This document shows, one piece after another, positions 19,626 through 59,084 of a DNA stretch of 64,000 nucleotides. The notes under the pieces are model-generated. The model saw nothing but the letters and a program-made list of their open reading frames with translations, had not been told where the DNA came from and did no database searches. The stretch comes from Gammaproteobacteria bacterium (lineage in GTDB: Bacteria; Pseudomonadota; Gammaproteobacteria; Xanthomonadales; SZUA-36). Both the position numbers and the translations under genes were made by a program. How positions within the stretch are numbered: position 1 is the stretch's first letter; every line of letters starts with the position of its first letter. The stretch spans positions 1 to 64,000 of the forward strand of contig JAJFLB010000055.1 of the NCBI GenBank assembly GCA_021772915.1. Direction: 5' to 3'.

Positions 19626-20687
19626 TTACTCTTCCCCCGAATGTTCGTCTATTGGAACAATTACCCGTACAACATCCCCGGTGAAGTGTATTCTCTTCGC
19701 CATTTCCGGTGTCAGATGGACCGTTCCCGACTCATCCACAACCGCCACCTGGTCCAGACCCAGCGCGCGAGCCACCGCAGGCCACCCCTCCAGACCGGCC
19801 ACCACCAACGCCGTTGACGCCGCATCCGCCAGCAGGCCTTTATCGGTAATCACCGTGACCGAAGCTACGTCTTGTGCCGGCCAGCCGCTGTGTGGGTCCA
19901 GGATGTGCGGATAACGTTCCTGTTCATCCTGTCGAAAACGTGCGTAGTTTCCCGACGTAAATACAGCCTCATCACCACGCACCTCCACCGTACCGATGTT
20001 GCCACCAGCGGGTCTTTTAACCGCTACCCGCCACGACCGGTCCCCGTGATGCCCCATTGCACGTAAATCGCCACCGGCATTCACAATGGCGTTGGTGATG
20101 CCCCGTTGTTGCAGGTGCCCGATTGCCAGGTCCACGGCGTAGCCCTTGGCAATGCCGCCAAAGTCCAGTTGCACCACCGGGTTGTCAGACCGGAGTTGTA
20201 AACCGTCAATATGAATGTCACGGCTCGAAGGCCGCGACTCAAGCAAGGCACTGATTTGTTTTTGAGCAGGGGGCGGACCGATAATCGGGTAGTCAGAAGT
20301 GTGGAATCCCCATAACCTGATCAACGCACCGATAGCCGGATTAAAGCGGCCACCAGTACGCTCTTCAATCCATTGTGATTGACGTACGATTGCGACGATG
20401 TCTTCGTCTGCTGTTGCGGGCTGCCCCTGGGTAAAGGCGTTGTTGATCTCCGTCAGCCGACCCGGCTCCCAGGCATGCAAGTCCCGGTGCATGGCGTGGA
20501 ACAGTTGCTGGATTTCTGCAAAGACGCGATTACCCTGCTCTTCTGTGACCCCCCAGAGCTTGATCTCCACGATGGTACCGAAAACAAACAAGCTCGCGCT
20601 TTGTTCTTCATCTTGCTGACACCCGGTCAGCACCAACAAGCAGGCAACTGCAGTCAACAAAAGTTTGGACACGACCGACGACACCAC
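19626..20687 (-). CDS. apbE: FAD:protein FMN transferase, lipoprotein
   Basis: ApbE transfers FMN from FAD onto threonines of RnfD and RnfG in the periplasm. Typical motifs are LDFGGIAKGYAVD, NAGGDLRAMG and YPHILDPHSGWPA. An N-terminal lipobox (LVLTGC) marks it as membrane-anchored. The open frame runs further upstream, but that stretch crosses the palindromic repeat pair at 20707-20764 and lacks protein features. GTG codons at 20687, 20684 or 20672 are the plausible starts, none with a strong ribosome site. It is the last gene of the kor-rnf operon, and both predicted acceptors (T-G-A-T in RnfG, S-A-T in RnfD) are encoded in the same operon. Confidence 0.88.
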   Translation of the reverse strand: MVSSVVSKLLLTAVACLLVLTGCQQDEEQSASLFVFGTIVEIKLWGVTEEQGNRVFAEIQQLFHAMHRDLHAWEPGRLTEINNAFTQGQPATADEDIVAIVRQSQWIEERTGGRFNPAIGALIRLWGFHTSDYPIIGPPPAQKQISALLESRPSSRDIHIDGLQLRSDNPVVQLDFGGIAKGYAVDLAIGHLQQRGITNAIVNAGGDLRAMGHHGDRSWRVAVKRPAGGNIGTVEVRGDEAVFTSGNYARFRQDEQERYPHILDPHSGWPAQDVASVTVITDKGLLADAASTALVVAGLEGWPAVARALGLDQVAVVDESGTVHLTPEMAKRIHFTGDVVRVIVPIDEHSGEE

Positions 20688-20706
20688 GTTGGGATTTGTT
20701 CTGTGT

Positions 20707-20764
20707 GGGACCGACGAAGAATTCGTCGGGAACGGTTCCCGACGAGCGAGCTCGTCGGTCCTAC
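20707..20764. repeat. Pair of palindromic REP-like repeats, copies B1 and B2
   Basis: GGGACCGACGAAGAATTCGT followed by CGGGAAC, then directly GGTTCCCGACGAGCGAGCTC followed by GTCGGTCCTAC. These are two copies of the family, back to back in opposite orientation. They lie between the small Cys-rich gene and apbE and overlap the last codon of the former. Confidence 0.8.
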
Positions 20765-20931
20765 GGGTCCTGCGAGGATGAGGTGTTCTCATTTTCTTTC
20801 TTGCATTCAGATTTATCGACACATCCGGTACAACCAGAGCAAACGGCTGCACTTTGCCCACGGCGATGGGTGAGACCAAATCCCACGAACAGCACAATCA
20901 AAAGGATCAGGGGGACTATATAGTCTTGCAT
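20761..20931 (-). CDS. Small Cys-rich membrane protein between rnfA and apbE, 56 aa
   Basis: One N-terminal transmembrane helix (YIVPLILLIVLFVGFGL) is followed by a short tail with a cysteine cluster C-S-G-C-T-G-C then C (residues about 31-43). The tail ends in a Ser/Glu-rich segment. The ATG at 20931 has AAAGGAATTG before it. The gene sits 10 bases after rnfA. This is the position that nqrM, the iron-delivering maturation factor of the related Na+-NQR, holds near apbE in nqr operons. It is not an obvious NqrM by sequence and could equally be a FeoB-associated-type Cys-rich protein. A role in maturing the RnfA/RnfE iron centre is inference. Confidence 0.65.
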   Translation of the reverse strand: MQDYIVPLILLIVLFVGFGLTHRRGQSAAVCSGCTGCVDKSECKKENENTSSSQDP

Positions 20932-20941
20932 TTCAATTCCT

Positions 20942-21517
20942 TTACAAGAGCCCGGCAAAACCCATAAACGCCAGGGACAAACTGCCGGCGATAATCAGCA
21001 CCAGACCGGTGCCCTTGGCGATCCCGGGGACATCTGACAACTCAACGGTCTCACGAATCGAGGCCATGAGCACCAGCGCCAGAGTAAGACCAAGACCGGC
21101 GCCCACTGCAAAAACCAGCCCTTGCAAGAATCCGTAGCCCCGATTGGTCTGAAAGATTGCCAGGCCAAAAATGGCACAGTTGGTGGTCATCAACGGCAGG
21201 AATATTCCCAATGCGCGAAACAGGGTTGGCGAGAGTTTCTTGACCACCATCTCTACTATCTGCACCAGTGATGCGACCACGATAATAAAAGAAATAATAC
21301 GCAAGTAGGGTGCTGATTCGAGAATAAAGGCATTGAGCACCCAGGCGCTCAGGGAGGTCAGTACCAGCACGAAAATGTTGGCCAACCCCATCCGCAGTGC
21401 CGTCTCCACCCGTGCAGAAACCCCCATAAACGGGCACAACCCCAGGAACATGGCGAGGGTAAAGTTGTTCACAACCATGGCGGAGAAGAAAATCGAAAAA
21501 AGTGTTTGATCACTCAT
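20942..21517 (-). CDS. rnfA: Rnf complex membrane subunit RnfA
   Basis: A 191-residue protein with six hydrophobic helices. It carries the paired motifs FLGLCPFMGV (Cys28) and TTNCAIFG (Cys114), whose cysteines ligate the membrane [2Fe-2S] centre shared between RnfA and RnfE. Length and motifs match the RnfA/NqrE family closely. It overlaps rnfE by four bases (ATGA), which implies translational coupling. The product is part of the ferredoxin:NAD+ oxidoreductase that couples electron flow to Na+ or H+ translocation. Confidence 0.93.
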   Translation of the reverse strand: MSDQTLFSIFFSAMVVNNFTLAMFLGLCPFMGVSARVETALRMGLANIFVLVLTSLSAWVLNAFILESAPYLRIISFIIVVASLVQIVEMVVKKLSPTLFRALGIFLPLMTTNCAIFGLAIFQTNRGYGFLQGLVFAVGAGLGLTLALVLMASIRETVELSDVPGIAKGTGLVLIIAGSLSLAFMGFAGLL

Positions 21518-22155
21518 ACCGATTCCTCCGTTATCTCACTTTCTTTCAGCTTCGATTTCTGCCGCGCTTCAACATAACCCATGGCCAACAGGATAAACCC
21601 CAGGGTCAGAAAACCACCTGCCGGCAATACCATGATCACCCATGGTTCAAAGTTCGGACCAAATAGTGAGTATTCAAGAAAGCTGCCGGTGCCCAGGATT
21701 TCGCGGAAACCACCCATCATGACCAGAGCAATGGTAAAGCCAATACCCGTTCCCATGGCATCGAGCAAGGAACGGGAGACATTGTTCTTGGCGGAAAAAG
21801 CTTCCTGGCGTCCGAGAATCATGCAATTCACCACGATCAGGGCAATAAATGCCCCCAGCTCTTTGTGTTGTACCGGTGCATAGGCCTGTAAAAGCATGTC
21901 AGCCAGGGTCACGAAGGTCGCAATCACCAGGATATAAGACGAAATACGAACCTCCTTGGGGATAAACTGCTTGCAACTTGAAACCAGCACGCTCGAGCAA
22001 CAGATCACAAAGAAGGTCGCCGCACTCATGGCGAGGGCATTTTTCACACTGTTGGTCACAGCCAACGCCGGGCACAGACCCAACATCTGGATGAGTACCG
22101 GATTCTCATCCCAGATGCCGCGAATGAAATCTTGAGAGGGACTTGTGGTTCTCAC
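21514..22155 (-). CDS. rnfE: Rnf complex membrane subunit RnfE
   Basis: A 213-residue homologue and membrane partner of RnfA, with MLGLCPALAVT (Cys28) and VNCMILGRQEAF (Cys111) as the pseudo-symmetric cysteine motifs. Six transmembrane helices are followed by a charged C-terminus. It overlaps rnfG upstream and rnfA downstream by four bases each. RnfE rather than NqrD is called because of the surrounding Rnf-specific genes, notably rnfB and rnfC. Confidence 0.92.
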   Translation of the reverse strand: MRTTSPSQDFIRGIWDENPVLIQMLGLCPALAVTNSVKNALAMSAATFFVICCSSVLVSSCKQFIPKEVRISSYILVIATFVTLADMLLQAYAPVQHKELGAFIALIVVNCMILGRQEAFSAKNNVSRSLLDAMGTGIGFTIALVMMGGFREILGTGSFLEYSLFGPNFEPWVIMVLPAGGFLTLGFILLAMGYVEARQKSKLKESEITEESV

Positions 22156-22865: not shown

Positions 22866-23875
22866 GACCCGGTCTCCTTCTTCTTTCCGCTTGTTCCGAA
22901 TAAGCGTGGTTGTGTTGCACGATTAATAAAAGGAACCAAGGCGTTCATCAACAAGATGGCGTACATCATGCCTTCCGGGAGCCCACCCCAGATACGGATC
23001 ACGGTGACCAGAAAACCGATACCAAAGCCAAACAACCAACAACCCAAGTTGGTAACAGGAGAAGTCACCATATCGGTTGCCATATAGATCGCGCCGAGCA
23101 TTACACCACCGGCGAACAACATGAACAGGGGTGGAAATTGTGAGACGCCCAGAACATAGAAGAGACCTGAAACTACGAATATGGAAACAAAAATGCTGAT
23201 CGGGATATGCCAATTCAGATGTCCCCGCAGCGCCAGGTAAAGACCACCAAGCAAAAGCAGCAGGGCCGAGGTCTCACCCAGGGACCCACCGGTCGTGCCA
23301 AAGAACAAATCCAGCAATGGCGTCACCACCGGATCGTCCTCAAATTTCAGATTACCCAGCGGGGTCGCCGAGGTTGCCGCGTCCACGACCGGACTCATAA
23401 ACGGCAGCGCGAAATTGTCCCCCTGTAAGACCCACCAATTGTCCGTTTTTGCAGGCCAGGTCGTAATTGCCACTGGAAAAGCCGCCTGCAAGAAAGCGCG
23501 TCCAACCAGTGCCGGATTGAAAACGTTTTGCCCCAGACCGCCAAACACGAGCTTGCCGAAAGCCATCCCGAACGCACCACCCAAAAATGCCATCCATAAC
23601 GGAAAACCCGGTGGCAGGGTCAAACCCAACAACAGGCCGGTAATCATCGCTGACCCGTCTGCCAGAGATCCGGGACGGGAGCCAAATAACCGCTCCGTCA
23701 CCAGGCAACCCGCCGCGCTGGCAAGTAATACCAGGATCGCACTGGGGCCAAAGAAATAGACCGAAGCCGCCACCACCGGTACCAGACTCATGACCACCGA
23801 CCACATGATCCGGACGGTAGACTCAGCCGAGCGCACATGGGGTGAAGCGGTCAGTTTTACGATGGAGTCGGTCAT
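22862..23875 (-). CDS. rnfD: Rnf complex flavoprotein membrane subunit RnfD
   Basis: A polytopic NqrB/RnfD-family protein of 337 residues. The covalent FMN site is VDAATSATPLGN, with Thr171 as acceptor. Conserved family segments GGLGQNVFNPALVGRAFLQ and LADGSAMITGLLLGLTLPP are present. The start is the ATG at 23875, overlapping the rnfC stop (ATGA). A longer upstream frame exists but would run inside rnfC. It overlaps rnfG by four bases. Confidence 0.93.
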   Translation of the reverse strand: MTDSIVKLTASPHVRSAESTVRIMWSVVMSLVPVVAASVYFFGPSAILVLLASAAGCLVTERLFGSRPGSLADGSAMITGLLLGLTLPPGFPLWMAFLGGAFGMAFGKLVFGGLGQNVFNPALVGRAFLQAAFPVAITTWPAKTDNWWVLQGDNFALPFMSPVVDAATSATPLGNLKFEDDPVVTPLLDLFFGTTGGSLGETSALLLLLGGLYLALRGHLNWHIPISIFVSIFVVSGLFYVLGVSQFPPLFMLFAGGVMLGAIYMATDMVTSPVTNLGCWLFGFGIGFLVTVIRIWGGLPEGMMYAILLMNALVPFINRATQPRLFGTSGKKKETGS

Positions 23876-25200
23876 GCCAGCTTGGCCAGTCTGCCCAATT
23901 GGACCCGGGATGCGGCAAACAACTGGGATAGAGGAATATTGGACGGACAGACGTATGAGCAGCACCCGCACAACATGCAATCACCCAGGTTTGCATCGGC
24001 CGCCAGTTCCTCAAAACGCTCGGCCTTCGCCAGGGCCCCCATCAACTGTGGATTCAGAAAGACCGGGCAAACCTCCAGGCACTTTCCACAACGGATACAG
24101 GGCAAGATGTCCTGCCGCTTGCATTCATCCCTTGATAGAACAAGCACCCCACCCGTGGCCTTGAGAATTGGTACATCAAGATTGGCTTGGCCAAGACCCA
24201 TCATGGGACCGCCGAAAACTATTTCAGCGGCATCATCGGTCAAGCCGCCACACTGGTTGATTACATCACGCAACCTGGTCCCAAAAGGTATCACCCAGTT
24301 ACCCGGCTTGCGGATGCCACGACCCGTCACTGTTATGATTCTTTCGATAAGCGGTTGCCCCGTGGTAAATACTGCGGCCACATTTGCTGAAGTCGCGACA
24401 TTTTGCACCAGCGCACCAATTGAACTTGGCAGTGCCCCCGACGGCACCTCACGACCCATGACCGCCTTGATTAACATTTTCTCGGCACCCTGCGGGTACT
24501 TTACCTGCAAGGCCTGCACGGTGACATCAAGATCGTGGGGTGCGGTGTTGCGCATCACCTCGATTGCATCGGGCTTATTGGCCTCAACACCAATCACCGC
24601 GCGGCTAATACCAAGTGCCTTGAGCGCAATCCGGATACCCAGGTATACCTTTTCAGGATGTTCCAGCATGGTGCGATGATCCGAGGTCAGATAGGGCTCG
24701 CACTCACAACCGTTGACCAACAACAGATCAATCGGCTGGTCTTTTGGTGGGGTCAGCTTGACGTGAGATGGGAAGGCGGCACCGCCAAGCCCCACAATAC
24801 CGGCCTTGCCAATCTCCCCGGAAAGGTCTTCATCCTCCACTTCTTCCCAGCGTGGAACAATACGTGGTCGCTGCATTTGGGTGGAGTTTGGGTCAACATC
24901 GATACGAATGGACGGCACCATCGTCCCGTTGGGGTGTGGCCATAGTTCGATCGATTTGACCACACCGGAAGCGGTGGCGTGGACCGACGAGGAGATAAAA
25001 CCGGCTGCCTGCGCTATGACATCGCCACGCTCAACACGGTCACCCGCTTGTACCAGGGACTCAGCCGGTGTTCCGATGTGCTGTGACAGGGGAAGGATGA
25101 TCTCATCGGGAAATGGAAACCTCCGGGAGGCGATCCCGGCAGTGATGTCCTTGTGCTCCGGTGGGTGGACCCCGTGTTTGAAACTGAGCAAGCTCTGCAT
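23872..25200 (-). CDS. rnfC: Rnf complex NADH/FMN-binding subunit RnfC
   Basis: A 442-residue peripheral subunit. The nucleotide/FMN site lies in GIVGLGGAAFPSHVK (about 134-148) and NGCECEPYL. Two C-terminal [4Fe-4S] motifs are CIRCGKCLEVCP (368-379) and CMLCGCCSYVCP (408-419). RnfC is the NAD-reducing end of the complex. It starts 22 bases after the nifJ stop and overlaps rnfD. It is shorter than the E. coli RsxC, which has a long repetitive tail, and so is closer to the compact clostridial form. Confidence 0.94.
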   Translation of the reverse strand: MQSLLSFKHGVHPPEHKDITAGIASRRFPFPDEIILPLSQHIGTPAESLVQAGDRVERGDVIAQAAGFISSSVHATASGVVKSIELWPHPNGTMVPSIRIDVDPNSTQMQRPRIVPRWEEVEDEDLSGEIGKAGIVGLGGAAFPSHVKLTPPKDQPIDLLLVNGCECEPYLTSDHRTMLEHPEKVYLGIRIALKALGISRAVIGVEANKPDAIEVMRNTAPHDLDVTVQALQVKYPQGAEKMLIKAVMGREVPSGALPSSIGALVQNVATSANVAAVFTTGQPLIERIITVTGRGIRKPGNWVIPFGTRLRDVINQCGGLTDDAAEIVFGGPMMGLGQANLDVPILKATGGVLVLSRDECKRQDILPCIRCGKCLEVCPVFLNPQLMGALAKAERFEELAADANLGDCMLCGCCSYVCPSNIPLSQLFAASRVQLGRLAKLA

Positions 25201-25222
25201 TTTAACTCTCAGTCCCTGGTGG

Positions 25223-28200
25223 TCAGTTAAAAGGCGCTGCCCGCGCGATCAACTTGTCCAGACCCTTCTCCTTGGGATTCAACGGGTCACCCGGGTGGAT
25301 ACATTCTGCCGGACAGGCCTCGGCGCCCATCACCAACTGTTTGAATGTCCCTGCCCTGACATCACCGATATAGGCCTGTTGGTCATCGTTGTAGATAAAC
25401 AGCTTCTCGTTGATCTTCAGGCAATCGTCACAGGAAGTGCAACGAATGCTGTCGATATAGGGTTCGTTGCCAAAATCATCCTCTTCTTCCTCGACGGATT
25501 CCGGCGTGGCCATGCTTTCGGCAACCACCTCGTCTGCGGCCGGTGCACCCGCAGGGGGTTCGGCTCCGTTTGTGAGGGCCATGGTGGCGGGAGCTGTGAA
25601 GGCAGGCCCGTCCCAGTTCTCCGCTTTTTCCAGTAACTGCGCCACGGTATCAGAGGCATTTGCACTCAACAGGCCTTTTGCAATCTGTCTTGCAATCAGC
25701 TGTGGATACTGAGTAGTCAGCTGGGTGATTTTTCCTTCGTACTCCGCCTTCAGGGCTTCAAGTTTTGCTTCCAATTGCTCACTGAGACCTTCACCGACTG
25801 CATCGCGCAGAAAGTCTGAAACATCGACACCCGCCAGCTCTTTCAACTGTGCCCAGTTGTGCAGACGCTCCTCGGCGAGGGCTGCAATTTCGTCCGAAAC
25901 GGACACCCTGCCAAGCTGTTTGTCCGCACCAACGGTGTAAATGAAGGCGGTTTGACCTTCACGCTCATCCTCTTCCAGCTCCAGGTATTCATGGAAAAGC
26001 AGTAAGTCACCGTCATCAACTACCGGCTTGAAATGACCCCGGAAACGCGCCTCTCCCAGAGCCCAGTCGGCTGTCGTGAGAGGCAGGGTCATTCTCTGTT
26101 CATCACCCTTGTCGTCCAGGTAGAGTAATTCATGGCTCGTCCACATCTCCAGTGGTGCAGGATTCCCCTCCAGGTCAAGACATTCAGAAAAAGTTGTACC
26201 CTGATCAGGGTCGAAGACGATATTGGGTACGGCGCGACTCTCCAGTGCGAGTCTTGCGGCGTCAGGGGCAGCAGCATCCGCAATCCCCCATTCTGGTGGG
26301 CAGGGCGTATTGAGAATAAATATGGAGGGCCGTCTGGCCTGCAAGCCCCGCAAAACATTCTTGATCAGGTGTGACGGTGTCGCCTGCGAGGATTGCACCA
26401 CAAAGGCACCCCGATGCGCCATTGCCAGCAAGGCGAGTTCCTTTCTGGTCTCCTCCTTTCCACGCTGGTCCGGACCAAACTCAGCCATGTCGGAAACCTG
26501 GCCCGTAAAGCCCGATGTACAGGCCTGCCCCCCGGTATTTGAATAAACCTGGGTATCCGCCACCACCACACGAACCGGTTTTCCGGAAGCCAGTACCCGG
26601 GACAGATTCTGGAATCCAATATCCATCATGGCGCCGTCACCACCCACCGCAAACAGGGGGGGACACAGGGTGAATTCATCATCCGTGAACTGCTGCCAGT
26701 CAAAATCCGAGAAAAACGTTTCATCGGTGGACGCATCATAAGACTCCGACAGGAGTTTCTCTGCCCGGCGTACCGTGATAAAGCCATCCGCCATTTTGCG
26801 CATGTGGCCTTCAAAAATACCCACGGCAACGGAAGGTGCATCCTGGAAAAGATGGTTTACCCAGGGAAATGGATAAGGATTATAGGGATAAGACGAACCC
26901 CACACTGAACTACAGCCCGTGGCATTGGTAAAACCAACATTTGCACGACCCCGACCACTCGGGCCGGATTCGTAGCGCCACTTGAGATCTTTCAGTGCCT
27001 GAATGGTTTCGTGGATCAGATGCACCGTCTCCTTGTCTGCTTCGGCGACCGGCATGGAAAGGTCTCCCGGACCGGTTGAGACCGTCGCCAAATCGGTCTC
27101 CGATATCAACAAGGCGCGTGCCTTTGCGTCCAACTCGTCGATCAGACGTGCCAGGTCTTTTATATGGTGCTCCACCCGCGGAGCCATAAATGCGTTCACA
27201 GCGGACAGAATGAGGTGAATTGTCGTTTTCTCACCACAGCCCATACACGCACCGTCACCACCAACCATCGACAGGTAGTTGCTCTGCTTGAGTAACAGTG
27301 ACGACAGGACACCGATGCCTTCATCCAGGCTTGAAATCTTGATGTACTGGTCATCGGTTTCTGGCAGGTTTTTCCAGAGTTTCCAGTTGGCTTCAAGTGT
27401 CTCCTGAAGTTCGTCCGTCTGACGCACACTCAGCAAGGCACCATCGGTACAAACCGCCACGCAAATATCACAGCCCTTACAGGTTTCCGGGTTGATCGTG
27501 ATCGAAAGCAATCCGCCAGTGCCCTTCTTTTTGCTCTCGGGCAAGTCGAAGAAAGGTTGTGTTTTGGCCAATGGAAAGTCAGCCAGGGCCGCGTAGACCA
27601 GGTTGTACTGTGCATCGACTTCGGCACGTCGCTCGGCATCCCAGTTGGATTTACCGGCAACTATCTCATAGGACTGAGCCAGCACGGCTCCGTAAGTCTT
27701 GAAAGTTCCGCTGGCAATGATCTTGCGTGACTCTTTGCCGAGGTGCCTGATGATTTGAAAAAACCGGGTGAGTGGCTTTTGAGGTGAAGAAACGGTTGCA
27801 ATGGCCGCTTCCAGTACTTCTTCAACCGTATTGACGACACCCGGGATGGCGGAGTCCGGGCATTGTGTCCAGCACTTACTGCAACCCGTGCACTTATCGG
27901 CTATAAACTCGGGCACATTGAAACGCACAGCCGACATATCCCGCATACTTGATGTTGCCGCTGGCATGGCACTAATCGCCGTGAAGGGATCAGCAATCAC
28001 ATCCCTGCCGGTCTTGTATTGCGCGCACACCTGGTTCCAGAAGTCACCCTGATTGCCAACCCCGGTGGCTGCGTTGACACCTGCCATCGCGTGAGGAATC
28101 AACGGCAGCAACTCTTCCTGCCCGTCATCTTCCAGATCGGTAAGATCGAGTGCCTGGACTTCGTCAAAACCCCGTGTAATGACCCGAATATTGTCCCCTA

Positions 28201-30241
28201 CGACCCCTTCACCCAGATGACCAAACTTTTTGGTCAACTGCTTGAGAATCCCTTCGAATAAGCGTTCGCGTGAAAGTCCATGGGTTTTCATTAGCGGAGC
28301 CGCATTGAAAAAAGCACCCATGAAGGCCACACCCTGCATCCGAAAACGCAGTTCGGCCTTTGAAGCTTCCGACAGCGCAATGCTAAACCCGTCTACGGAA
28401 AAGACCTTGATTTTCTTTTTGCGGATCGTGCGTTGCGCCGTTTGCGGGAAACTGTTCCACAATTCATTACCTGTTAGTTCGCTCTGAATAATGAACACAC
28501 CCTCATCACACAACCCTGCCAGCGGGTCTGAATGTAAAAACACGTTGGGGTCGGGAGAGAGCACAACACTGACATGCTTGAGTTCGCAATTCAGACGCAA
28601 GGGCTCCTGCGACAACATCGCATAGAAGGTTGTGGGTTGACCCTTCTTTTCTGAGCCGTATTTGGGGTTCGCCTTGATATGCAGACCCAGCAACTCAGCA
28701 GCCGTCATCGCCAGGTTCTTACCCATGGTGATTGCACCCCAGCCGCCGACCGAGTGAATTCTAAGTTCTACCGTGTCCTCCGGAAAAAGATTCAGATCGC
28801 CGGCTGAGGGAAGCGCCAGCTCGGCCACCTGCGGATAATCGGCAAGGATTTTCTCCTGCCAGATCTGCATTTTTGGAAGCGGTGTATCCTGCTGAATAAA
28901 GTCTATACCGAGGTAGAACTGACGTTGTTTGCGACCATCTGCGAGCATATTGTCTACGGCTGCGACAACATTTCCGGGCTGCAGGTCCCGGCTTCCCAGA
29001 CCAAAACAGCCGGAGTAAAAATCAGGTACCTGGTCACCACTGAGCGCCGCCAGGCCGGCGTATGGAAGACTGTCGGTAGCACCCCCATTGGTAGCACGCC
29101 CATTTTCGACTGCCTGCGCCATCGCTGAGCGAATCTCACGAATCATGGGTAATTCAACCGCCATGGGCTGGTCGGTGCGTTCAAGCACGACCACACCCTG
29201 CTTGCCTGCCAGCATTCTTGAGACCAGGTCCGCCGGGAACGGACGAAACATGACCAGGTCAAGCACGCCCACCTTCAGGCCACGTTTTTCACGCAGGTAA
29301 TCCGCCACCACCTCGGCATTGCATATCACCGAGCCCTGCCCAACGATGACATACTCCGCATCGTCCAGACGATATCCCAAAGCACGGTCGTATTTGCGTC
29401 CGGAGAGTTCTTCAAACTCTGCGCAGGCCTGATTGGTCAATGCGGCAATATGGTCAAAGTAGAAAGGTCTCTGCGCGGCCACGCCCTGTGCATAACTTTC
29501 CTGATTTTGCACGACACCCAACATCGCCGGATAATCAAAGTTGTACAGCTCAGGGATACGCCGCCGGCGCTCGCCAAAAACAGCACGTTGTGCCCCGGTG
29601 GGTGAGTCAATCATGTCCGCCGGATCACCCAGGTACTCGCAAATCAATGCTCGCTCAGGTTCATAGAATGATTCAATCACGTGGGAGGTCAGGAAACCGT
29701 CCTGTGCACATATCCCGGGGTTGAGGGAAAGCTCTGCTACACGATGCGCAATCAGATTCAGGTCGGCAACGCTTTGCACATCCTTCGCAAAAAGCTGAAA
29801 AAAGCCGGTATCGTCAATAGCATGGTAATCGTCGTGTCCTGCGTGCACATTGAGTGAGTGTTTGGTCATGGCACGGCAAGCGACGTTGAGAACATAGGTC
29901 AATCGCTTGCCCACGGCCGCGTATAACGATTCGTGCATGTACGCGATACCCTGGCCACTGGAGAAATTGGTCGAGCGTAGTCCAACCATGCTCATCCCCG
30001 CGGTTACACCAGCAGCGGCATGTTCTCCTTCGGGTTCAAAAAATATCAGGTTACGTCCGTTTACATTCTTCTCACCCCGGGCAACCGCCATTGCCCAACC
30101 TTCCCCCATTTGCGTGGAAGGCGTAATCGGATAGGCACCGGCCGCTTCACTCGCAGCGGTCTCCATTGAGACAACCGCCGCGCTCCCATCCTCTGTTTTT
30201 AGCAGCCCGGGGTACTTGGCCTGGCTTTTTCCCTGTTTCAT
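25223..30241 (-). CDS. nifJ: Pyruvate:ferredoxin oxidoreductase (NifJ-type) with C-terminal ferredoxin-like extension, 1672 aa
   Basis: A single-chain 2-oxoacid:ferredoxin oxidoreductase. It converts pyruvate and CoA to acetyl-CoA, CO2 and reduced ferredoxin. Alpha domain: residues 1-470, with AYPITPSTQMGE at 36-47. Gamma domain: 490-700 (HSVGGWGAITMGKNLA). Two [4Fe-4S] motifs: C784/787/790/794 and C921/924/927/931. Proximal cluster motif: CMGCGE at 999-1004. TPP domain: GGDGAMMDIG at 1200-1209 and VYSNTGGQ at 1232-1239. Usual family length is about 1170-1230. Here some 450 more residues follow: an alpha/coiled region (1440-1545), an acidic Pro/Ala linker, and a ferredoxin-like end with Cys1601/1604/1607 and Cys1643. 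It overlaps rnfB (ATGA). The substrate (pyruvate) is inferred from family resemblance only. Confidence 0.9.
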   Translation of the reverse strand: MKQGKSQAKYPGLLKTEDGSAAVVSMETAASEAAGAYPITPSTQMGEGWAMAVARGEKNVNGRNLIFFEPEGEHAAAGVTAGMSMVGLRSTNFSSGQGIAYMHESLYAAVGKRLTYVLNVACRAMTKHSLNVHAGHDDYHAIDDTGFFQLFAKDVQSVADLNLIAHRVAELSLNPGICAQDGFLTSHVIESFYEPERALICEYLGDPADMIDSPTGAQRAVFGERRRRIPELYNFDYPAMLGVVQNQESYAQGVAAQRPFYFDHIAALTNQACAEFEELSGRKYDRALGYRLDDAEYVIVGQGSVICNAEVVADYLREKRGLKVGVLDLVMFRPFPADLVSRMLAGKQGVVVLERTDQPMAVELPMIREIRSAMAQAVENGRATNGGATDSLPYAGLAALSGDQVPDFYSGCFGLGSRDLQPGNVVAAVDNMLADGRKQRQFYLGIDFIQQDTPLPKMQIWQEKILADYPQVAELALPSAGDLNLFPEDTVELRIHSVGGWGAITMGKNLAMTAAELLGLHIKANPKYGSEKKGQPTTFYAMLSQEPLRLNCELKHVSVVLSPDPNVFLHSDPLAGLCDEGVFIIQSELTGNELWNSFPQTAQRTIRKKKIKVFSVDGFSIALSEASKAELRFRMQGVAFMGAFFNAAPLMKTHGLSRERLFEGILKQLTKKFGHLGEGVVGDNIRVITRGFDEVQALDLTDLEDDGQEELLPLIPHAMAGVNAATGVGNQGDFWNQVCAQYKTGRDVIADPFTAISAMPAATSSMRDMSAVRFNVPEFIADKCTGCSKCWTQCPDSAIPGVVNTVEEVLEAAIATVSSPQKPLTRFFQIIRHLGKESRKIIASGTFKTYGAVLAQSYEIVAGKSNWDAERRAEVDAQYNLVYAALADFPLAKTQPFFDLPESKKKGTGGLLSITINPETCKGCDICVAVCTDGALLSVRQTDELQETLEANWKLWKNLPETDDQYIKISSLDEGIGVLSSLLLKQSNYLSMVGGDGACMGCGEKTTIHLILSAVNAFMAPRVEHHIKDLARLIDELDAKARALLISETDLATVSTGPGDLSMPVAEADKETVHLIHETIQALKDLKWRYESGPSGRGRANVGFTNATGCSSVWGSSYPYNPYPFPWVNHLFQDAPSVAVGIFEGHMRKMADGFITVRRAEKLLSESYDASTDETFFSDFDWQQFTDDEFTLCPPLFAVGGDGAMMDIGFQNLSRVLASGKPVRVVVADTQVYSNTGGQACTSGFTGQVSDMAEFGPDQRGKEETRKELALLAMAHRGAFVVQSSQATPSHLIKNVLRGLQARRPSIFILNTPCPPEWGIADAAAPDAARLALESRAVPNIVFDPDQGTTFSECLDLEGNPAPLEMWTSHELLYLDDKGDEQRMTLPLTTADWALGEARFRGHFKPVVDDGDLLLFHEYLELEEDEREGQTAFIYTVGADKQLGRVSVSDEIAALAEERLHNWAQLKELAGVDVSDFLRDAVGEGLSEQLEAKLEALKAEYEGKITQLTTQYPQLIARQIAKGLLSANASDTVAQLLEKAENWDGPAFTAPATMALTNGAEPPAGAPAADEVVAESMATPESVEEEEDDFGNEPYIDSIRCTSCDDCLKINEKLFIYNDDQQAYIGDVRAGTFKQLVMGAEACPAECIHPGDPLNPKEKGLDKLIARAAPFN

Positions 30242-31116
30242 GCTACTTGCTTCTCCTGCTCCAGGACCCTGCCGGTCTTGACCGATCCTGGTGAGCTTTC
30301 CTTAAACTGCTGTCCTTCAACCCACACAATCGCATTGGTCGGACAACGTGTTAGCGCTTGCGGACTGGTCAGGGAGTTTTTTTCATAATCGATAACCGCC
30401 AGGTCATTTTGAATTTCTATGACACCTGGCTCTGAATCTGCAACACACTTGTTGCAGGCATTACACGCCACTTTGCACAGGTCTTCTGCGGCATTCCCAT
30501 TGAGCAGGTTCCTGCACTGTACGATCAACTTCTGGTCCATGGGCATCAACACAAACAGATCATTGGGGCAAGTCTCAACACAGTCGCTACAGGCTGTACA
30601 GCGCTCGGGCACAACCACGGGCAAACCGTTTTCATTCATATAAATTGCATCGAGAAGACAGGACGACTCACAATCAGCAAGGCTCAGGCACCCCCAGGTA
30701 CACCCTTTGCCGCCGCCTGCAACCGCTGCCGCTGCCTTGCAGGTTGCATACCCCGCGTAATCCGAATGTTGCACGGCCTCCTCATATCCACCTGCGCACA
30801 GTAAACGGGCCACGCGTTTGTTGGCTGCACCGGCATTAACACCCAGGTAGCTTGCGACATCGTCAATATCATCAACACCCATCACGGTACAGCCTGAAGG
30901 TTCCTGCTTTCCTGAAACCACAGCTTCAGCAAATGCCCGGCAGCCCGGGACACCGCAAGCGCCACAGTTCGTTCCCGGCAACAACTCGTCCACCGCATCT
31001 ATACGGGGGTCTTCCCACACCTTGAATTTTTTGTTCACCAACGCGATCAGGAAGCCAAAGAAAAGCCCCACGCTTCCGAGGATCAGGGCTGAATCTATAA
31101 TGGGACTACCGCTCAT
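30238..31116 (-). CDS. rnfB: Rnf complex iron-sulfur subunit RnfB
   Basis: An N-terminal membrane helix (about 9-27) is followed by the RnfB-specific cluster LPGTNCGACGVPGC (Cys51, 54, 59) with Cys76. Further cysteine groups follow at 139/143/149/153, 173/176/179/183 and 214/218/221/224 with Cys258, enough for several [4Fe-4S] centres. RnfB is the entry point for electrons from reduced ferredoxin. Its gene is placed upstream of nifJ, away from rnfCDGEA, and overlaps nifJ by four bases. This close pairing suggests stoichiometric expression with the pyruvate enzyme. Confidence 0.92.
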   Translation of the reverse strand: MSGSPIIDSALILGSVGLFFGFLIALVNKKFKVWEDPRIDAVDELLPGTNCGACGVPGCRAFAEAVVSGKQEPSGCTVMGVDDIDDVASYLGVNAGAANKRVARLLCAGGYEEAVQHSDYAGYATCKAAAAVAGGGKGCTWGCLSLADCESSCLLDAIYMNENGLPVVVPERCTACSDCVETCPNDLFVLMPMDQKLIVQCRNLLNGNAAEDLCKVACNACNKCVADSEPGVIEIQNDLAVIDYEKNSLTSPQALTRCPTNAIVWVEGQQFKESSPGSVKTGRVLEQEKQVA

Positions 31117-31153
31117 GCATATTCCCTAAGTTCAATACAACCTTATTGGACCA

Positions 31154-32116
31154 CTATGCTGACAGATTGGTTTGACTTAACAACCAGGCCGACAACTTGC
31201 CCGCCGGATCCGAGGCTGTTTCATCCGAACCCGCAGGGTTTCTGGCCAGACTTTCCAGCAGGGCGCAATCTTCCGCCTGTTGCGCCGCGCTAATTCCACC
31301 AATGGCCCGGTTGTTGGTCTCCTTCGGAAACTCCAGGACCACGAAACGTTCATGCGTGCTGGCGCCTGCGGCTGGATCATGCACAAAACTCACCGCGGTC
31401 TGCGGTAGTAATGCCGCCACGGCCATACCATCAAATCCCGCAAAGGCCTCCAACGCAGCCTCGCCGGTTTCCTGCTGCACAAACACACCCGGAGAAACCA
31501 CCCGCGCAAGCCCGGCGGCCGGTGCGTCGCCTGTCACGTTAAAGACAAACTTGGTCTTGGCGTCAAGAAAGCTCACGATCGGCGCGGGTTTAAAGTCCGC
31601 CCCCGCCAGTTCGATCACCAGGGCGGGTGCCAGTGCGCGCTCTGAGCTACTCCATTTGGTGAAAGGAAACTTCTCCAGCATGTCTGCGTGCAGGTCTTCC
31701 CGATACTCGCCGCGCCGCGCCAGCTCAATGACCCTGGCGGCTGCAAAAGCCCGGCCAATTACTGCAAGCCGGTTGGCAACTTTGTATGCCAGGCCCTTGC
31801 CCTTTTTGATCCGTACAACAAACAGGTCATCCCCAGCTTCGAGCAATGAAACCAGCACTTGATGTGCAGCCCTAATCGGAGCTTCGACGGCACCATCAAC
31901 GGCCGCTGCCTTGGGCGCAAAGGCGGCGAATCTCTCAATGTCCACCTTGCCCTGGGCAAAAAGCCCCAGCGCGACGGACTGATCGTCCTCGGCATTCCCC
32001 GAACCTGCCAACAAACCGCGCACCTGGTTTGCGGTAACGGCCAATGCAGAATGAAACAGTTCTATACGCGGTCGAACTGCATCCAGGGCACAAGCCTTGC
32101 GTTGTTCAGACGCCAT
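31154..32116 (-). CDS. Unknown soluble protein inside the kor-rnf operon, 320 aa
   Basis: I do not recognise the family. The sequence is Ala-rich and soluble, with no signal peptide, no membrane helix and no cysteine cluster; only about two cysteines are visible. The central part (KIKKGKGLAYKVANRLAVIG, about residues 100-120, and FLDAKTKFVFNVTGDAPA) looks globular. The start is the ATG at 32116, with AAGGAG 10 bases before it, overlapping the korB stop by 11 bases. It ends 37 bases before rnfB. Lying between a 2-oxoacid oxidoreductase and RnfB, it may be a docking, assembly or regulatory protein for ferredoxin-linked enzymes (inference from position only). Confidence 0.75.
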   Translation of the reverse strand: MASEQRKACALDAVRPRIELFHSALAVTANQVRGLLAGSGNAEDDQSVALGLFAQGKVDIERFAAFAPKAAAVDGAVEAPIRAAHQVLVSLLEAGDDLFVVRIKKGKGLAYKVANRLAVIGRAFAAARVIELARRGEYREDLHADMLEKFPFTKWSSSERALAPALVIELAGADFKPAPIVSFLDAKTKFVFNVTGDAPAAGLARVVSPGVFVQQETGEAALEAFAGFDGMAVAALLPQTAVSFVHDPAAGASTHERFVVLEFPKETNNRAIGGISAAQQAEDCALLESLARNPAGSDETASDPAGKLSAWLLSQTNLSA

Positions 32117-33059
32117 AGCGGTCAAACTCCTTTTCCAACTTGTTAATTTTCTCTTCTGCCGAAACAGGACTCACTGCCCGAATCTCGTCGTACACGGGAA
32201 AACTGTCATCCTTAAAGAAGATACCCAGACGCAACAGGTCAGATCGCTGTGCCAACGCACGTGCCTCATCAAGGTCTTTTGGATTATGCTCGCGGCGTGC
32301 CTTGAAGAGCTTTTCTAACCCGGGCGCATCCACACCATCTGCATGAACCAGCAACTCGACATGGTCCGGATTCTTTATCGCGTCATCAAACACATCCGGG
32401 GTGAACTTGGGGCAACGTTGCAGGATGCGGATAAAGGAAAAACCATTATGGTCATAGGCTGCCTGTAGGGTGGCATAAAGATGTGCTGGTACCCAGTCAG
32501 CGGTTTGTGCAACAAACGAGGCATTTGAAACACCCAGTGTTGCCTGTAAAGGATCCAGCGCCGGCAATACCGAACCCCGCGGGGAGGTATTGGAAGCATA
32601 ACCCTCCGGGGTGGTCGGAGAGGTTTGATTCTTGGTTAGTCCATAGATGTTGTTATCCAGCAACAAAACGGTCATGTTCGGGTTGTAACGCGTGGCGTGA
32701 ATCCAATGACCGGCACCGATGGAAGTACAGTCGCCGTCACCCATCACCACAAAAACATCCAGTTCGGGCCGTGCGAGTTTCAGCCCCGTTGCAATCGGCA
32801 ACGCCCGACCGTGAATCCCGTGAAAACCATAAGCATTGACATAATGTGGGAAACGACTTGAGCAGCCGATACCCGACACAAATGCCATTTTTTCAGGTTG
32901 AAGTTGTTCCTTGGCCAATAGTCGTTTGACCGCGTTGAGGGCACCAAAGTCACCACAACCGGCACACCACTTGCCGACACGGGTCTGATAATCATCCGCC
33001 TCAAGACACTTGGACTCGTCGAATTCACAATCCAGGAGGGAAACCGCAATGCTGCTCAT
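32106..33059 (-). CDS. korB: 2-Oxoacid (2-oxoglutarate-type):ferredoxin oxidoreductase, beta subunit
   Basis: The 317-residue TPP-binding subunit. It has the cluster motif GKWCAGCGDFG near the N-terminus, with a further Cys in GIGCSSRFPHY. The TPP/Mg motif runs from GDGDC to NNIYGLTKNQ. Length and motifs fit KorB/OorB. It overlaps korA by four bases (ATGA). Together the two subunits oxidatively decarboxylate a 2-oxoacid, most likely 2-oxoglutarate to succinyl-CoA, and reduce ferredoxin; the reverse direction is also possible with strongly reduced ferredoxin. Confidence 0.88.
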   Translation of the reverse strand: MSSIAVSLLDCEFDESKCLEADDYQTRVGKWCAGCGDFGALNAVKRLLAKEQLQPEKMAFVSGIGCSSRFPHYVNAYGFHGIHGRALPIATGLKLARPELDVFVVMGDGDCTSIGAGHWIHATRYNPNMTVLLLDNNIYGLTKNQTSPTTPEGYASNTSPRGSVLPALDPLQATLGVSNASFVAQTADWVPAHLYATLQAAYDHNGFSFIRILQRCPKFTPDVFDDAIKNPDHVELLVHADGVDAPGLEKLFKARREHNPKDLDEARALAQRSDLLRLGIFFKDDSFPVYDEIRAVSPVSAEEKINKLEKEFDRYGV

Positions 33060-34933
33060 TTGGAAACTCCTATCTCAATGTTCTTGACAATTGAGTTGTA
33101 AATGTCCTTTGGTCGTAGCGGCTGTCCGGGACAACTCGTCCAACAGTCAATATCAATCAGGGTATGCGCACGCAACAGCCAGGCAAGCTGGCCATAACGA
33201 CGTGTTTCTTCGGTAATGTACGGATCGCCGACGGTATCGGAATAGTTGATTTCCACTGTCATCACCTTTTTGAACCGGCCAAAAATCTTTTTTAAATCCG
33301 GCTCAAGTGGTGAGAGGAAAGTCAGCTGACAGGAAGAGACCTTGCATTCTTCTGCGCGGACACGATCCACGGCCTCTTCAATGGCACCCTGAGTTGAACC
33401 CCAGCCCACCACCAGAAGATCACCTTTTTCATCACCATAAACCGGCGGGGGCATGAGCGTGGACTGGAAAACAGCCAATTTCCGGCTCCGCATCTTGCAA
33501 CCACGCTCATTGCTCTCGGGGTCATAGGAAACCCGGCTTTCTTCATCATGTGCCAGTCCCGTCACCGTGTGCTGACCGCTGGGGGTACCGGGGATGACCC
33601 GTCTGGACATACCGGTTTCAGGGTCCCAGTCATACGGCCGCAGACCTTCAGGTAATGGCGACACATCAACTGGATTCTGTTGCCAGCGGGCATCGAAATC
33701 GGGGCGTGTAAACTGTTGCACCCCCGAGGCCAGATTGGCATCAGTCAGAACAATCACCAGGCATCGGAATGTCTCGGCAATACGGCGTGCCGTAATCATG
33801 GAGTGAAAACAGTCTTCAATGGACCGTGGCGCAAGCACTACACGTGGTGCATCACCTGGTTGCGCATATAGCGCTGCCAGCAGATCAGATTGCTCTACCT
33901 TCGTTGGTAAACCGGTCGAAGGCCCGCCACGCTGAACATCAAGCACAACCAGCGGTATTTCGACCATGACCGCGAGGGCCAAAAACTCTGTCTTGAGCGC
34001 CATGCCGGGTCCCGAGGTCACCGTCAGAGCCACCTTGCCACCGTAAGACGCACCCAGTGCGACACCCGCAGCCGCGATCTCATCTTCCGCCTGGTGCACC
34101 ATGCCACCATAATTTTCAAAAATGTCAGACAGCTCGTGTGAGACAGAGGTCGCCGGTGTGATCGGATACATGGCACATATTTCCATGCCGGCTGCAATTG
34201 CACCGAGCGCCGCCGCCTGGTTGCCGTTCATCACGACCCGCGCTTCCTGCGCTACAACTGATTCAATCTCAAACTGAAAACCCAGGTTCTTACGGGCCCA
34301 GGCGATACCGTGTTTAACCAACTCCACGTTGATCTCGGTCACACTGGCTGCTTTGTGCCGAAAAATATGCCCAATCTGTTTCTCGACAACAGCCAAATCA
34401 CGCTGGTATATTTCTGTCAGCAACCCCAGTGCAAACATGTTCTTCCCAAGCTGCGGGTTATCAACGAGCTTGAGTGTCTCTTCCTCAATGGGTACCTGGA
34501 TGAAGCGGTAATTCTTGGAAGACATTTCTTCCATCGCTTTTGCATAGTTGTCACGGACCGCTTCGTCTTCATGATTCTCCCAGGCGCTTTCCTGAAGAAT
34601 GATGCAATTGTCATCAAAAGACCCCAGACGATGGCGTGAAAGACATACCTGCTCATTAAAGGCGACCGCCAGCTTCGACTGGTCCCCCCAGTTGCTCACA
34701 CGTTCCGTTCCAAAGCGAATGATGTTCCCTGAGGTGCTGGTTACGGTGTGATGTGGGGGCTCGATCTCGGCTGGAATGATCTCAACGGTCCAGACGCCAT
34801 TGCCCATCTTGGCACAGGTTTGCCCAAAGATTTGCGCACACTTTTGCGCACCTTCACCCGAGTTGGTGATGATCTCAACAGTGTGCTCAGGAACTCTGGT
34901 AATGTTCGTCTTGCTACTGGCCTTCTTGCTCAC
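33056..34933 (-). CDS. korA: 2-Oxoacid (2-oxoglutarate-type):ferredoxin oxidoreductase, fused gamma-alpha subunit
   Basis: The N-terminal third is the gamma domain (GEGAQKCAQIFGQTCAKMG). The rest is the alpha domain, with ICAMYPITPATSVSHEL near the middle and VGWGSTQGAIEEA toward the end. A fused gamma-alpha chain of about 620 residues is the form found in many bacteria. I prefer the GTG at 34933, which has GGGAG 9 bases before it and is followed by SKKASSK; the frame stays open 12 codons further. This is the first gene of the long leftward operon that ends with apbE. The FNR-like site at 35171-35184 lies upstream. Confidence 0.87.
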   Translation of the reverse strand: MSKKASSKTNITRVPEHTVEIITNSGEGAQKCAQIFGQTCAKMGNGVWTVEIIPAEIEPPHHTVTSTSGNIIRFGTERVSNWGDQSKLAVAFNEQVCLSRHRLGSFDDNCIILQESAWENHEDEAVRDNYAKAMEEMSSKNYRFIQVPIEEETLKLVDNPQLGKNMFALGLLTEIYQRDLAVVEKQIGHIFRHKAASVTEINVELVKHGIAWARKNLGFQFEIESVVAQEARVVMNGNQAAALGAIAAGMEICAMYPITPATSVSHELSDIFENYGGMVHQAEDEIAAAGVALGASYGGKVALTVTSGPGMALKTEFLALAVMVEIPLVVLDVQRGGPSTGLPTKVEQSDLLAALYAQPGDAPRVVLAPRSIEDCFHSMITARRIAETFRCLVIVLTDANLASGVQQFTRPDFDARWQQNPVDVSPLPEGLRPYDWDPETGMSRRVIPGTPSGQHTVTGLAHDEESRVSYDPESNERGCKMRSRKLAVFQSTLMPPPVYGDEKGDLLVVGWGSTQGAIEEAVDRVRAEECKVSSCQLTFLSPLEPDLKKIFGRFKKVMTVEINYSDTVGDPYITEETRRYGQLAWLLRAHTLIDIDCWTSCPGQPLRPKDIYNSIVKNIEIGVSK

Positions 34934-37448: not shown

Positions 37449-37690
37449 GACCGACGAGCTTGTGGGACTGACGAGCTTGTGGGACCGATGAGCTTGTAGG
37501 ACCGACGAGCTTGTGGGACTGACGAGCTTGTGAGACCGACGAGCTTGTGGGACCGACGAGCTTGTGGGACCGACGAGCTTGTAGGACCGACGAGCTTGTG
37601 AGACTGACAAGCTTGTGGGACTGACGAGCTTGTAGGACCGACGAGCTTGTGAGACTGACGAGCTTGTGGGACTGACGAGCTTGCTCGTCG
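37447..37690. repeat. 18-bp tandem array derived from the palindromic repeat
   Basis: About fourteen consecutive copies of an 18-base unit close to GACCGACGAGCTTGTGGG, with single-base variants (C/T at the fourth position, GTGGG/GTAGG/GTGAG ends). Only the last unit carries the complementary arm (GAGCTTGCTCGTCGGG), restoring the full palindrome seen at 1283 and 20707. There are no spacers, so it is not a CRISPR. Confidence 0.9.
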
Positions 37691-59054: not shown

Positions 59055-59084
59055 AACCCAGCGATAGTGGGCAAAGGAGGTTGA

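What the first reader, a model, noticed from the sequence alone, without database searches (positions are those of the whole stretch)
19626..34933. One operon joins two ferredoxin-reducing 2-oxoacid oxidoreductases to a complete Rnf pump
korA, korB, an unknown gene, rnfB, nifJ, rnfC, D, G, E, A, a small Cys-rich gene and apbE run leftward. Most junctions are four-base ATGA overlaps. This implies coordinated output of KGOR, PFOR and Rnf so that ferredoxin reduced by 2-oxoacid oxidation feeds NAD+ reduction with ion pumping. Run in reverse, Rnf would supply ferredoxin for carboxylation. Such a combined unit is unusual in a gammaproteobacterium with an otherwise respiratory-looking gene set.
Basis: partly seen in the sequence, partly recalled or inferred. 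Interest (0 to 1): 0.85.

Follow-up and report, generated by a model that had tools for sequence, protein, structure and literature searches.

The report
Pyruvate-oxidising enzyme wired to Rnf pump
A bacterium keeps the genes for two enzymes that strip electrons from food acids in one row with the genes for an electron-driven ion pump, and the larger enzyme carries its own electron carrier on a floppy arm, which suggests that enzyme and pump work together as one machine.

Summary
The operon is real: korA-korB-unknown-rnfB-nifJ-rnfCDGEA-small Cys-rich-apbE, minus strand, 34933-19626. It is not an oddity: it recurs in the window's uncultured Lysobacterales family and in Gemmatimonadota, and its core, nifJ inside an rnf operon, recurs in many phyla. 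One paper already noted PFOR genes between rnfB and rnfC in a gammaproteobacterial symbiont.

Not found in ten literature searches: (1) The 1672-residue NifJ is a divergent PFOR subfamily (392 bits, cut-off 911), rnf-linked in 62 of 62 testable loci among the closest 80; ordinary PFORs show none in 11 loci. (2) It carries a fourth [4Fe-4S] site in a C-terminal ferredoxin domain behind a disordered linker; two homologues without neighbouring rnf end before this arm. (3) The 'unknown gene' is most likely a dead copy of NifJ's thiamine domain.

I read this as an Rnf-dedicated 2-oxoacid oxidation module with a tethered ferredoxin. Direct electron hand-over, direction and substrates are inferred. 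The genome also has aceE pyruvate dehydrogenase; no 2-oxoglutarate dehydrogenase E1 was detected.

The parts
33056..34933 (-). korA: fused gamma-alpha subunit of a 2-oxoacid:acceptor oxidoreductase
   Evidence: TIGR03710 518 bits, over cut-off 482.75; POR and POR_N domains; best solved match Magnetococcus OFOR 6n2n (name); GTG start
32106..33059 (-). korB: beta (thiamine) subunit; Cys 32, 35, 66 and 216 conserved, consistent with one [4Fe-4S] cluster
   Evidence: TPP_enzyme_C; TIGR02177 220 bits, below its 261.9 cut-off; those Cys in 27-28 of 28
31154..32116 (-). Unknown gene: probable catalytically dead paralogue of NifJ domain VI (thiamine domain), no conserved Cys
   Evidence: No family; model pLDDT 81.7; the nine best VIA-align rows are all PFOR domain VI or oxalate oxidoreductase beta chains, Z 6.2-8.0; profile matches to the 752-aa paralogue and to NifJ, with controls
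30238..31116 (-). rnfB, long form with 20 Cys conserved in 77-78 of 78 sequences
25223..30241 (-). nifJ: 1672-aa divergent PFOR-like 2-oxoacid oxidoreductase, Cys for three internal [4Fe-4S] sites plus a fourth in a C-terminal ferredoxin domain
25472..25618 (-). NifJ residues 1542-1590: predicted disordered linker
   Evidence: pLDDT under 50; variable length, rich in Ala/Pro/Glu
25226..25462 (-). NifJ residues 1594-1672: tethered single-cluster ferredoxin domain
   Evidence: Fer4_13; phmmer match to ferredoxin I 1dax E 7.7e-5; four Cys in 72-73 of 74, gaps otherwise
23872..25200 (-). rnfC
   Evidence: TIGR01945 507 bits
22862..23875 (-). rnfD
   Evidence: TIGR01946 319 bits
22152..22865 (-). 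rnfG, FMN-binding domain
   Evidence: PF04205
21514..22155 (-). rnfE
   Evidence: PF02508
20942..21517 (-). rnfA
   Evidence: PF02508
20761..20931 (-). Small membrane-anchored Cys-rich protein, 56 aa
   Evidence: An ORF of this kind after rnfA in 33 of 51 loci against 38 of 3000 random windows (the pattern misses L103 and L109, where tblastn does find it); weak PF12669 match E 0.005, below cut-off
19626..20687 (-). apbE, FAD:protein FMN transferase, predicted lipoprotein
   Evidence: PF02424; probable GTG start and LTGC lipobox

Best explanation
The operon encodes a dedicated 2-oxoacid-to-NAD+ ion-pumping module. A long PFOR-like enzyme (NifJ) oxidises pyruvate or a similar 2-oxoacid with thiamine and three [4Fe-4S] clusters. 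Its electrons pass to a fourth cluster, in a ferredoxin domain tethered at its C-terminus by a flexible arm, which swings to RnfB; Rnf then reduces NAD+ and pumps Na+ or H+. KorAB feeds a second 2-oxoacid (perhaps 2-oxoglutarate) into the same sink. The unknown gene is a catalytically dead copy of NifJ's thiamine domain that probably docks KorAB to NifJ or to the pump. ApbE attaches FMN to Rnf subunits, and the small Cys-rich membrane protein probably helps assembly. Shown here: gene content, conserved linkage, cluster cysteines, predicted linker disorder, arm absent in two homologues without neighbouring rnf, homology of the unknown gene to the thiamine domain. Inferred: substrates, direction, arm-to-RnfB transfer, docking, roles of the small proteins.
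For: nifJ is rnf-linked in 62 of 62 loci with at least 1.3 kb downstream: 59 with rnfC within 500 nt, L122 and L146 with rnfC at 837 and 647 nt, L119 with rnfB 30 nt upstream. Controls: ordinary PFOR loci, none of 11 with any rnf match. NifJ distances track RnfB (r 0.86, n 78), RnfC (0.88, n 71) and KorA (0.86, n 26), 0 of 999 permutations each. The 12 internal cluster Cys and the thiamine and substrate positions T40, E73, R123, D1202, D1229 and T1230 are invariant in 74 of 74; the ferredoxin Cys are in 72-73 of 74 with gaps otherwise. Linker pLDDT under 50, ferredoxin domain 82-91. Homologues L160 and L169, without rnf in the 20 kb fetched, end near NifJ residue 1470. Unknown gene: hhalign scores 60.7 and 54.1 against at most 22.2 in 50 controls. 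Kor genes sit with nifJ-rnf in several forms.
Against: No RNA, protein or activity data; no complex could be modelled. The same kind of ferredoxin arm sits on the 731-752-aa dead paralogue beside korAB in L172 and L173, where no rnf lies within the stretch, although both genomes hold Rnf/Nqr genes elsewhere; so the arm is not strictly an rnf-neighbour feature. The genomes of L160 and L169 hold Rnf-Nqr family genes elsewhere too. In the window the unknown gene has no arm, so its docking role rests on resemblance alone. The distance correlations also contain shared descent and one probable duplicate. The 80 loci are the closest of at least 573, so linkage in more distant members is untested.
Confidence: 0.6

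Rival explanations
1. Loose coupling: the enzymes and Rnf are merely co-regulated and share a soluble ferredoxin pool; the C-terminal domain is one more internal relay or a lid, and the unknown gene is a stability factor.
For: PFOR and Rnf are described as joined through ferredoxin in Bacteroides (passages of PMC12718326). D. africanus PFOR also has a C-terminal extension (recalled).
Against: rnf linkage of this one PFOR subfamily in every testable locus while ordinary PFORs of the same family are unlinked; arm missing in two unlinked homologues.
Confidence: 0.28
2. Reverse use: Rnf runs backwards, using the ion gradient to reduce ferredoxin so that NifJ and KorAB carboxylate acetyl-CoA and succinyl-CoA (assimilation).
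For: Both enzyme classes are reversible (established knowledge). A pyruvate dehydrogenase E1 and E2 are present, so an oxidative PFOR would be partly redundant.
Against: No RuBisCO match (0 of 1; 5 of 14 controls ring). No citrate-binding ATP-citrate-lyase domain was found, but that search rang in no control and shows little. Autotrophy was looked for only in these two ways.
Confidence: 0.15
3. NifJ is not a pyruvate enzyme but acts on another 2-oxoacid, for instance an amino-acid-derived one.
For: Far below the PFOR equivalog cut-off (392 against 911 bits); the genome has aceE and eight further POR-domain matches outside the window.
Against: Residues aligned to PFOR substrate and thiamine residues (T40, E73, R123) are invariant in 74 of 74 (their roles in PFOR are recalled).
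Confidence: 0.25
4. The unknown gene is unrelated to OFORs and the matches are spurious.
For: Foldseek alone found nothing at E<=0.001; a VIA-align Z of 6-8 is by the tool's own note not decisive.
Against: Three agreeing lines: fold rows, two profile matches against 50 controls, and the same slot after korB held by a NifJ-like dead paralogue in three other genomes.
Confidence: 0.12

Closest known systems
rnf2 operon of the Solemya velum gill symbiont (PMC4287430)
   Same: Gammaproteobacterium (recalled); PFOR genes between rnfB2 and rnfC2 of an rnfBCDGEA operon; the authors suggest pyruvate as a donor for at least one Rnf (passages read)
   Different: One sentence in the passages read, with no mention there of korAB, a tethered ferredoxin, a dead thiamine-domain gene or a wider distribution; whether its PFOR belongs to this subfamily was not tested
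Pyruvate:ferredoxin oxidoreductase (TIGR02176; PDB 1b0p, 6cin, 7plm)
   Same: Same domain order, cluster Cys and thiamine motifs
   Different: About 450 residues longer, below the equivalog cut-off, insertion between the two ferredoxin-domain cluster motifs, extra helix-linker-ferredoxin arm, rnf-linked
Rnf complex, order rnfBCDGEA
   Same: All six subunits present, B-C-D-G-E-A order apart from the inserted nifJ
   Different: nifJ inserted between rnfB and rnfC; korAB and a dead thiamine-domain gene in front
2-oxoacid:acceptor oxidoreductase of KorAB type (TIGR03710; PDB 6n2n)
   Same: Fused gamma-alpha subunit plus beta subunit
   Different: Encoded with an Rnf and a dead thiamine-domain protein

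Membership tests
Rnf complex | rnfA, B, C, D, G, E all present in one cluster | tested here: met
   TIGR01944, TIGR01945 and TIGR01946 over cut-off
Rnf complex | Ferredoxin:NAD+ oxidoreduction with ion transport | not testable with these tools
   needs membranes or purified complex
PFOR (TIGR02176 equivalog) | Score over the curated equivalog cut-off of 911.35 bits | tested here: not met
   392 bits
PFOR superfamily (OFOR fold) | POR_N, PFOR_II, POR, Fer4 and thiamine domains in PFOR order; Cys of clusters A, B and C | tested here: met
   Cys invariant in 74 of 74; Foldseek 6cin E 3.7e-16 for residues 700-1672, TM-score 0.32 over several domains
PFOR superfamily (OFOR fold) | Pyruvate as substrate | not testable with these tools
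   only residue conservation
2-oxoglutarate:ferredoxin oxidoreductase (KorAB) | KorA over a general 2-oxoacid oxidoreductase alpha model | tested here: met
   TIGR03710 518 bits against 482.75
2-oxoglutarate:ferredoxin oxidoreductase (KorAB) | Curated equivalog for 2-oxoglutarate synthase alpha | tested here: not met
   NF007206 199 against 579 bits
Dead OFOR domain VI paralogue (unknown gene) | Homology to NifJ domain VI | tested here: met
   hhalign probability 92.9 and 84.9, scores 60.7 and 54.1; 50 controls reach at most 22.2
Dead OFOR domain VI paralogue (unknown gene) | Loss of cluster Cys | tested here: met
   no column with Cys in 70% or more of 20 sequences
Dead OFOR domain VI paralogue (unknown gene) | Thiamine-domain fold | tested here: inconclusive
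   nine best VIA-align rows are PFOR domain VI or oxalate oxidoreductase beta chains, Z 6.2-8.0; Foldseek none at E<=0.001
NqrM maturation factor (PF04400) | PF04400 match of the small Cys-rich protein | tested here: inconclusive
   no match at the gene in a search of the whole genome, but no control genome passed the cut-off

The most novel reading that the evidence does not exclude
This is a membrane-docked, ion-pumping 2-oxoacid:NAD+ oxidoreductase: NifJ, KorAB and Rnf form one supercomplex in which a ferredoxin on a swinging arm replaces soluble ferredoxin, in the way the lipoyl arm works in pyruvate dehydrogenase, and a dead copy of the enzyme's own thiamine domain acts as the adaptor that brings in the second enzyme. 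The unit has been passed as a block between phyla, for example between Gemmatimonadota and this Lysobacterales family.
Probability: 0.35. Interest if true: 0.85.

Novelty: new variant of a known kind. Interest (0 to 1): 0.62.

Why it matters
PFOR and Rnf are treated as separate machines joined by soluble ferredoxin (recalled). A PFOR subfamily that sits in rnf operons in every testable locus among its closest 80 relatives, across many phyla, and that brings its own tethered ferredoxin, would make a direct low-potential electron conduit from central carbon metabolism to an ion pump testable. Several carriers belong to genera that I recall as aerobic or facultative, so it could show how organisms with ordinary pyruvate dehydrogenase gain extra energy at low oxygen. 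The dead thiamine-domain protein is a concrete case of an enzyme domain recruited as a likely assembly factor.

Tried and rejected
Plain-PFOR reading of NifJ: rejected because of score, length and extra domain. NifJ as replacement for a missing pyruvate dehydrogenase: rejected, aceE and E2 are present. Unknown gene as a new fold: first suggested by the Foldseek result with nothing at E<=0.001, dropped after the second look and profile comparisons. NqrM identity of the small Cys-rich protein: no match at the gene, but no control passed the cut-off; PF12669 is only a weak match. ATP-citrate-lyase search: uninformative, no control rang. Rfam: no match in the window. Promoter-like sites were below expectation (7 found, 10.2 expected) and terminator-like sites somewhat above (27 found, 18.7 expected, sd 3.8); neither settles the transcript. 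G007 shows the operon twice at opposite ends of one contig (L046, L047), probably an assembly duplicate. Nine named loci have the contig lengths of stretches fetched, and L130 that of L167, so these sets overlap. Among the 11 ordinary-PFOR controls L184, L182, L174 and L177 have little sequence on at least one side. In one search the rnfB count is 57 of 70 upstream; of the 13 others 9 have rnfB downstream and 4 (L114, L141, L149, L155) show none in the stretch held. In the tree one outgroup (L178) is only 405 residues because of an in-frame stop, the node joining the window's branch to one Gemmatimonadota subgroup has support 0.23, and the clade of all other loci 0.28. Literature: all 10 searches used; of what I opened, only PMC4287430 reports a PFOR inside an rnf operon. 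The library lacks most subscription papers and the main Rnf review is not held, so 'not found in print' means these searches only. Of the papers opened I saw passages only: PMC4287430, PMC5317091, PMC3534657, PMC12718326, PMC2626281.
Full report
Observation. Translation, Pfam and NCBIfam scans confirm the operon on the minus strand: korA 34933-33056, korB 33059-32106, an unknown gene 32116-31154, rnfB 31116-30238, nifJ 30241-25223, rnfC, rnfD, rnfG, rnfE, rnfA, a 56-residue Cys-rich membrane protein 20931-20761, and apbE about 20687-19626. Six of 11 junctions are four-base overlaps, four ATGA and two GTGA. It holds the only two Rnf-Nqr family matches in this 98% complete genome.

Organism. The genome has ten POR-domain matches, a homodimeric pyruvate dehydrogenase E1 with its E2, and no match to the 2-oxoglutarate dehydrogenase E1 C-terminal domain (0 of 1; 6 of 14 controls ring). 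Two further E2 genes resemble sucB below its cut-off, and several other 2-oxoacid oxidoreductases could serve the citric acid cycle, so the role of this korAB is open.

Conservation among relatives. In 61 genomes a match of best E-value 0 occurs in 20 of 37 members of the same family, the window's genome included, and in 1 of 24 from the rest of the order. Of 20 stretches fetched, 16 have the window's type: 13 show korA and korB ahead of the unknown gene, rnfB and nifJ, and 3 are cut by contig ends before that point; two of the 13 are the doubled copy in G007. Four (G017, G028, G022, G040) have the rnfB-nifJ-rnfCDGEA core at about 50% identity; in G017 and G022 a different kor set lies upstream.

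Wider spread. The named collection gave at least 573 relatives, of which the best 80 were kept. They are labelled Gemmatimonadota, Lysobacterales, Woeseiaceae, Ectothiorhodospira, Sedimenticola, Bacteroidota, Calditrichota, Myxococcota, Acidobacteria, Verrucomicrobia and others; labels are as deposited and some MAG labels may be wrong. Nine of the 80 have the contig lengths of stretches fetched. Of 62 loci with at least 1.3 kb downstream of nifJ, 59 have rnfC within 500 nt, two at 647 and 837 nt, and one (rnfC 7.7 kb away) has rnfB 30 nt upstream. rnfB lies within 500 nt upstream in 57 of 70; of the other 13, nine have rnfB downstream and four show none in the stretch held. Ordinary PFOR genes, 24-26% identical over their first half, from this family and one other gammaproteobacterium, show no rnf match in any of 11 loci, some with short flanks. 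In a class-wide sample 18 of 232 genomes match at E<=1e-100, the window's own included. I fetched 12 of the other 17. The 7 full-length ones all sit in rnf operons, one of them (L167) probably being the record of L130. Of the 5 divergent or partial ones, L162 is rnf-linked, and L160, L161, L168 and L169 show no rnf, L161 and L168 being cut short by contig ends.

Two types. A tree of NifJ places the window, its family and Gemmatimonadota in one clade (support 1.0). The Lysobacterales branch lies inside this mostly Gemmatimonadota clade, which suggests transfer between phyla, though some inner supports are low (0.23 at one node). Taking 55% identity as the limit of this type, korA, korB and the unknown gene are present in 22 of 22 loci with 4.8 kb upstream; the unknown gene is found in 0 of the 45 other loci. 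Pairwise distances of NifJ correlate with those of the Rnf, Kor and unknown proteins (r 0.67-0.88, 0 of 999 permutations each). Shared species descent contributes to this.

NifJ. It scores 392 bits against a cut-off of 911 for the PFOR equivalog and is about 450 residues longer than the nearest solved PFORs (1171-1232 residues). The 12 Cys of three internal clusters and residues aligned to thiamine and substrate positions are invariant in 74 of 74 sequences. A fourth, C-terminal cluster has its four Cys in 72-73 of 74, the rest being gaps. That domain matches ferredoxin I, 1dax (E 7.7e-5), which I recall as a Desulfovibrio africanus protein and partner of that organism's PFOR. The model of residues 700-1672 shows a long helix, a stretch under pLDDT 50 at residues 1542-1590, and a well-folded ferredoxin domain. 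The linker is variable (23-93 residues among 72 sequences) and rich in Ala, Pro and Glu. The split homologues L160 and L169, with no rnf in the 20 kb fetched, end near NifJ residue 1470, without helix, linker or ferredoxin; their genomes hold Rnf-Nqr family genes elsewhere.

The unknown gene. No Pfam or NCBIfam match. Foldseek finds nothing at E<=0.001, but the second aligner's nine best rows are all PFOR domain VI or oxalate oxidoreductase beta chains, Z 6.2-8.0, a level that the tool itself calls indecisive. In L172, L173 and L162 the slot after korB holds a protein of 731-752 residues that aligns with NifJ 700-1672 over 733 columns (E 3.6e-98) yet keeps no full set of internal cluster Cys. 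L172 and L173 keep the ferredoxin arm, with no rnf in the stretch; in L162 the arm lies just outside the reading frame. The unknown gene's profile matches this paralogue (score 60.7, probability 92.9) and NifJ (54.1, 84.9), while 40 column shuffles, two reversals and eight other families give at most 22.2. It has no conserved Cys. I therefore read it as a shrunken dead copy of NifJ's thiamine domain.

Mechanism. NifJ oxidises pyruvate or a similar acid, its tethered ferredoxin reduces RnfB, and Rnf reduces NAD+ while pumping ions; KorAB shares this outlet, perhaps docked by the dead domain. ApbE attaches FMN (established role of the family). The small Cys-rich membrane protein, with a like ORF after rnfA in 33 of 51 loci against 38 of 3000 random windows, may serve assembly. 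Direction in vivo is not settled. kor genes stand near nifJ-rnf in several forms: the window's type; L162 with a dead paralogue; L152 (Algoriphagus) behind rnfB; divergent in L112 and L116 (Woeseiaceae); a three-subunit type with an FAD protein in L062. This favours a functional link between the two oxidoreductases and Rnf.

Known or new. Dmytrenko and colleagues (PMC4287430; passages read; author name recalled) reported pyruvate:ferredoxin oxidoreductase genes between rnfB2 and rnfC2 in the Solemya velum symbiont and proposed pyruvate as donor. The bare arrangement is therefore known. In Caldithrix abyssi the PFOR and rnf locus tags lie far apart. I found no account of the subfamily, its arm, its spread, the kor-fused form or the dead thiamine domain in ten searches of a library that lacks most subscription papers.

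Noticed in passing
window 37448-37683: Tandem array of about 14 copies of a 17-bp unit (GGACCGACGAGCTTGTG) at the end of a transglutaminase-TPR gene; a palindromic element sharing the GACCGACGA core also sits between the small Cys-rich gene and apbE (about 20700-20760).
   Followed up: partly
window 37847-40141 (-): MtrC/MtrF-like multihaem outer-membrane cytochrome with 9 CXXCH motifs, about 2.9 kb upstream of korA with other genes between; possible extracellular electron transfer.
   Followed up: no
window 40386-42410 (-): RACo-type reductive activator of a corrinoid protein (ASKHA domain, 2Fe-2S); suggests corrinoid-dependent methyl transfer.
   Followed up: no
L172 10576-12834, L173 1731-3926: 731-752-residue dead PFOR-half paralogue with an intact ferredoxin arm directly after korB, with no rnf in the stretch; may be a KorAB-specific electron arm.
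   Followed up: partly
L162 1886-19015: In a single-contig genome (G090) korA-korB-dead paralogue-rnfB-divergent nifJ (29%)-rnfCDGEA in one cluster: a second version of the combined unit. korA and the dead paralogue appear split between frames.
   Followed up: partly
L156 19455-21231, L137 19424-21198: Bacteroidota versions show two ORFs of 285 and 288 aa after rnfA; at least one is rnfB by tblastn, and the 288-aa ORF of L156 has RnfB-type Fe-S domains.
   Followed up: partly
L046 and L047 (G007 contig C13, both ends): The whole operon appears twice in opposite orientation with the same identities, probably an assembly duplicate.
   Followed up: no
own genome G000, C25 about 57400-61000 (L067): A kor-type oxidoreductase directly behind a GltD-like NAD(P)-binding protein (the latter below its cut-off), suggesting an NAD(P)-linked 2-oxoacid oxidoreductase.
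   Followed up: no
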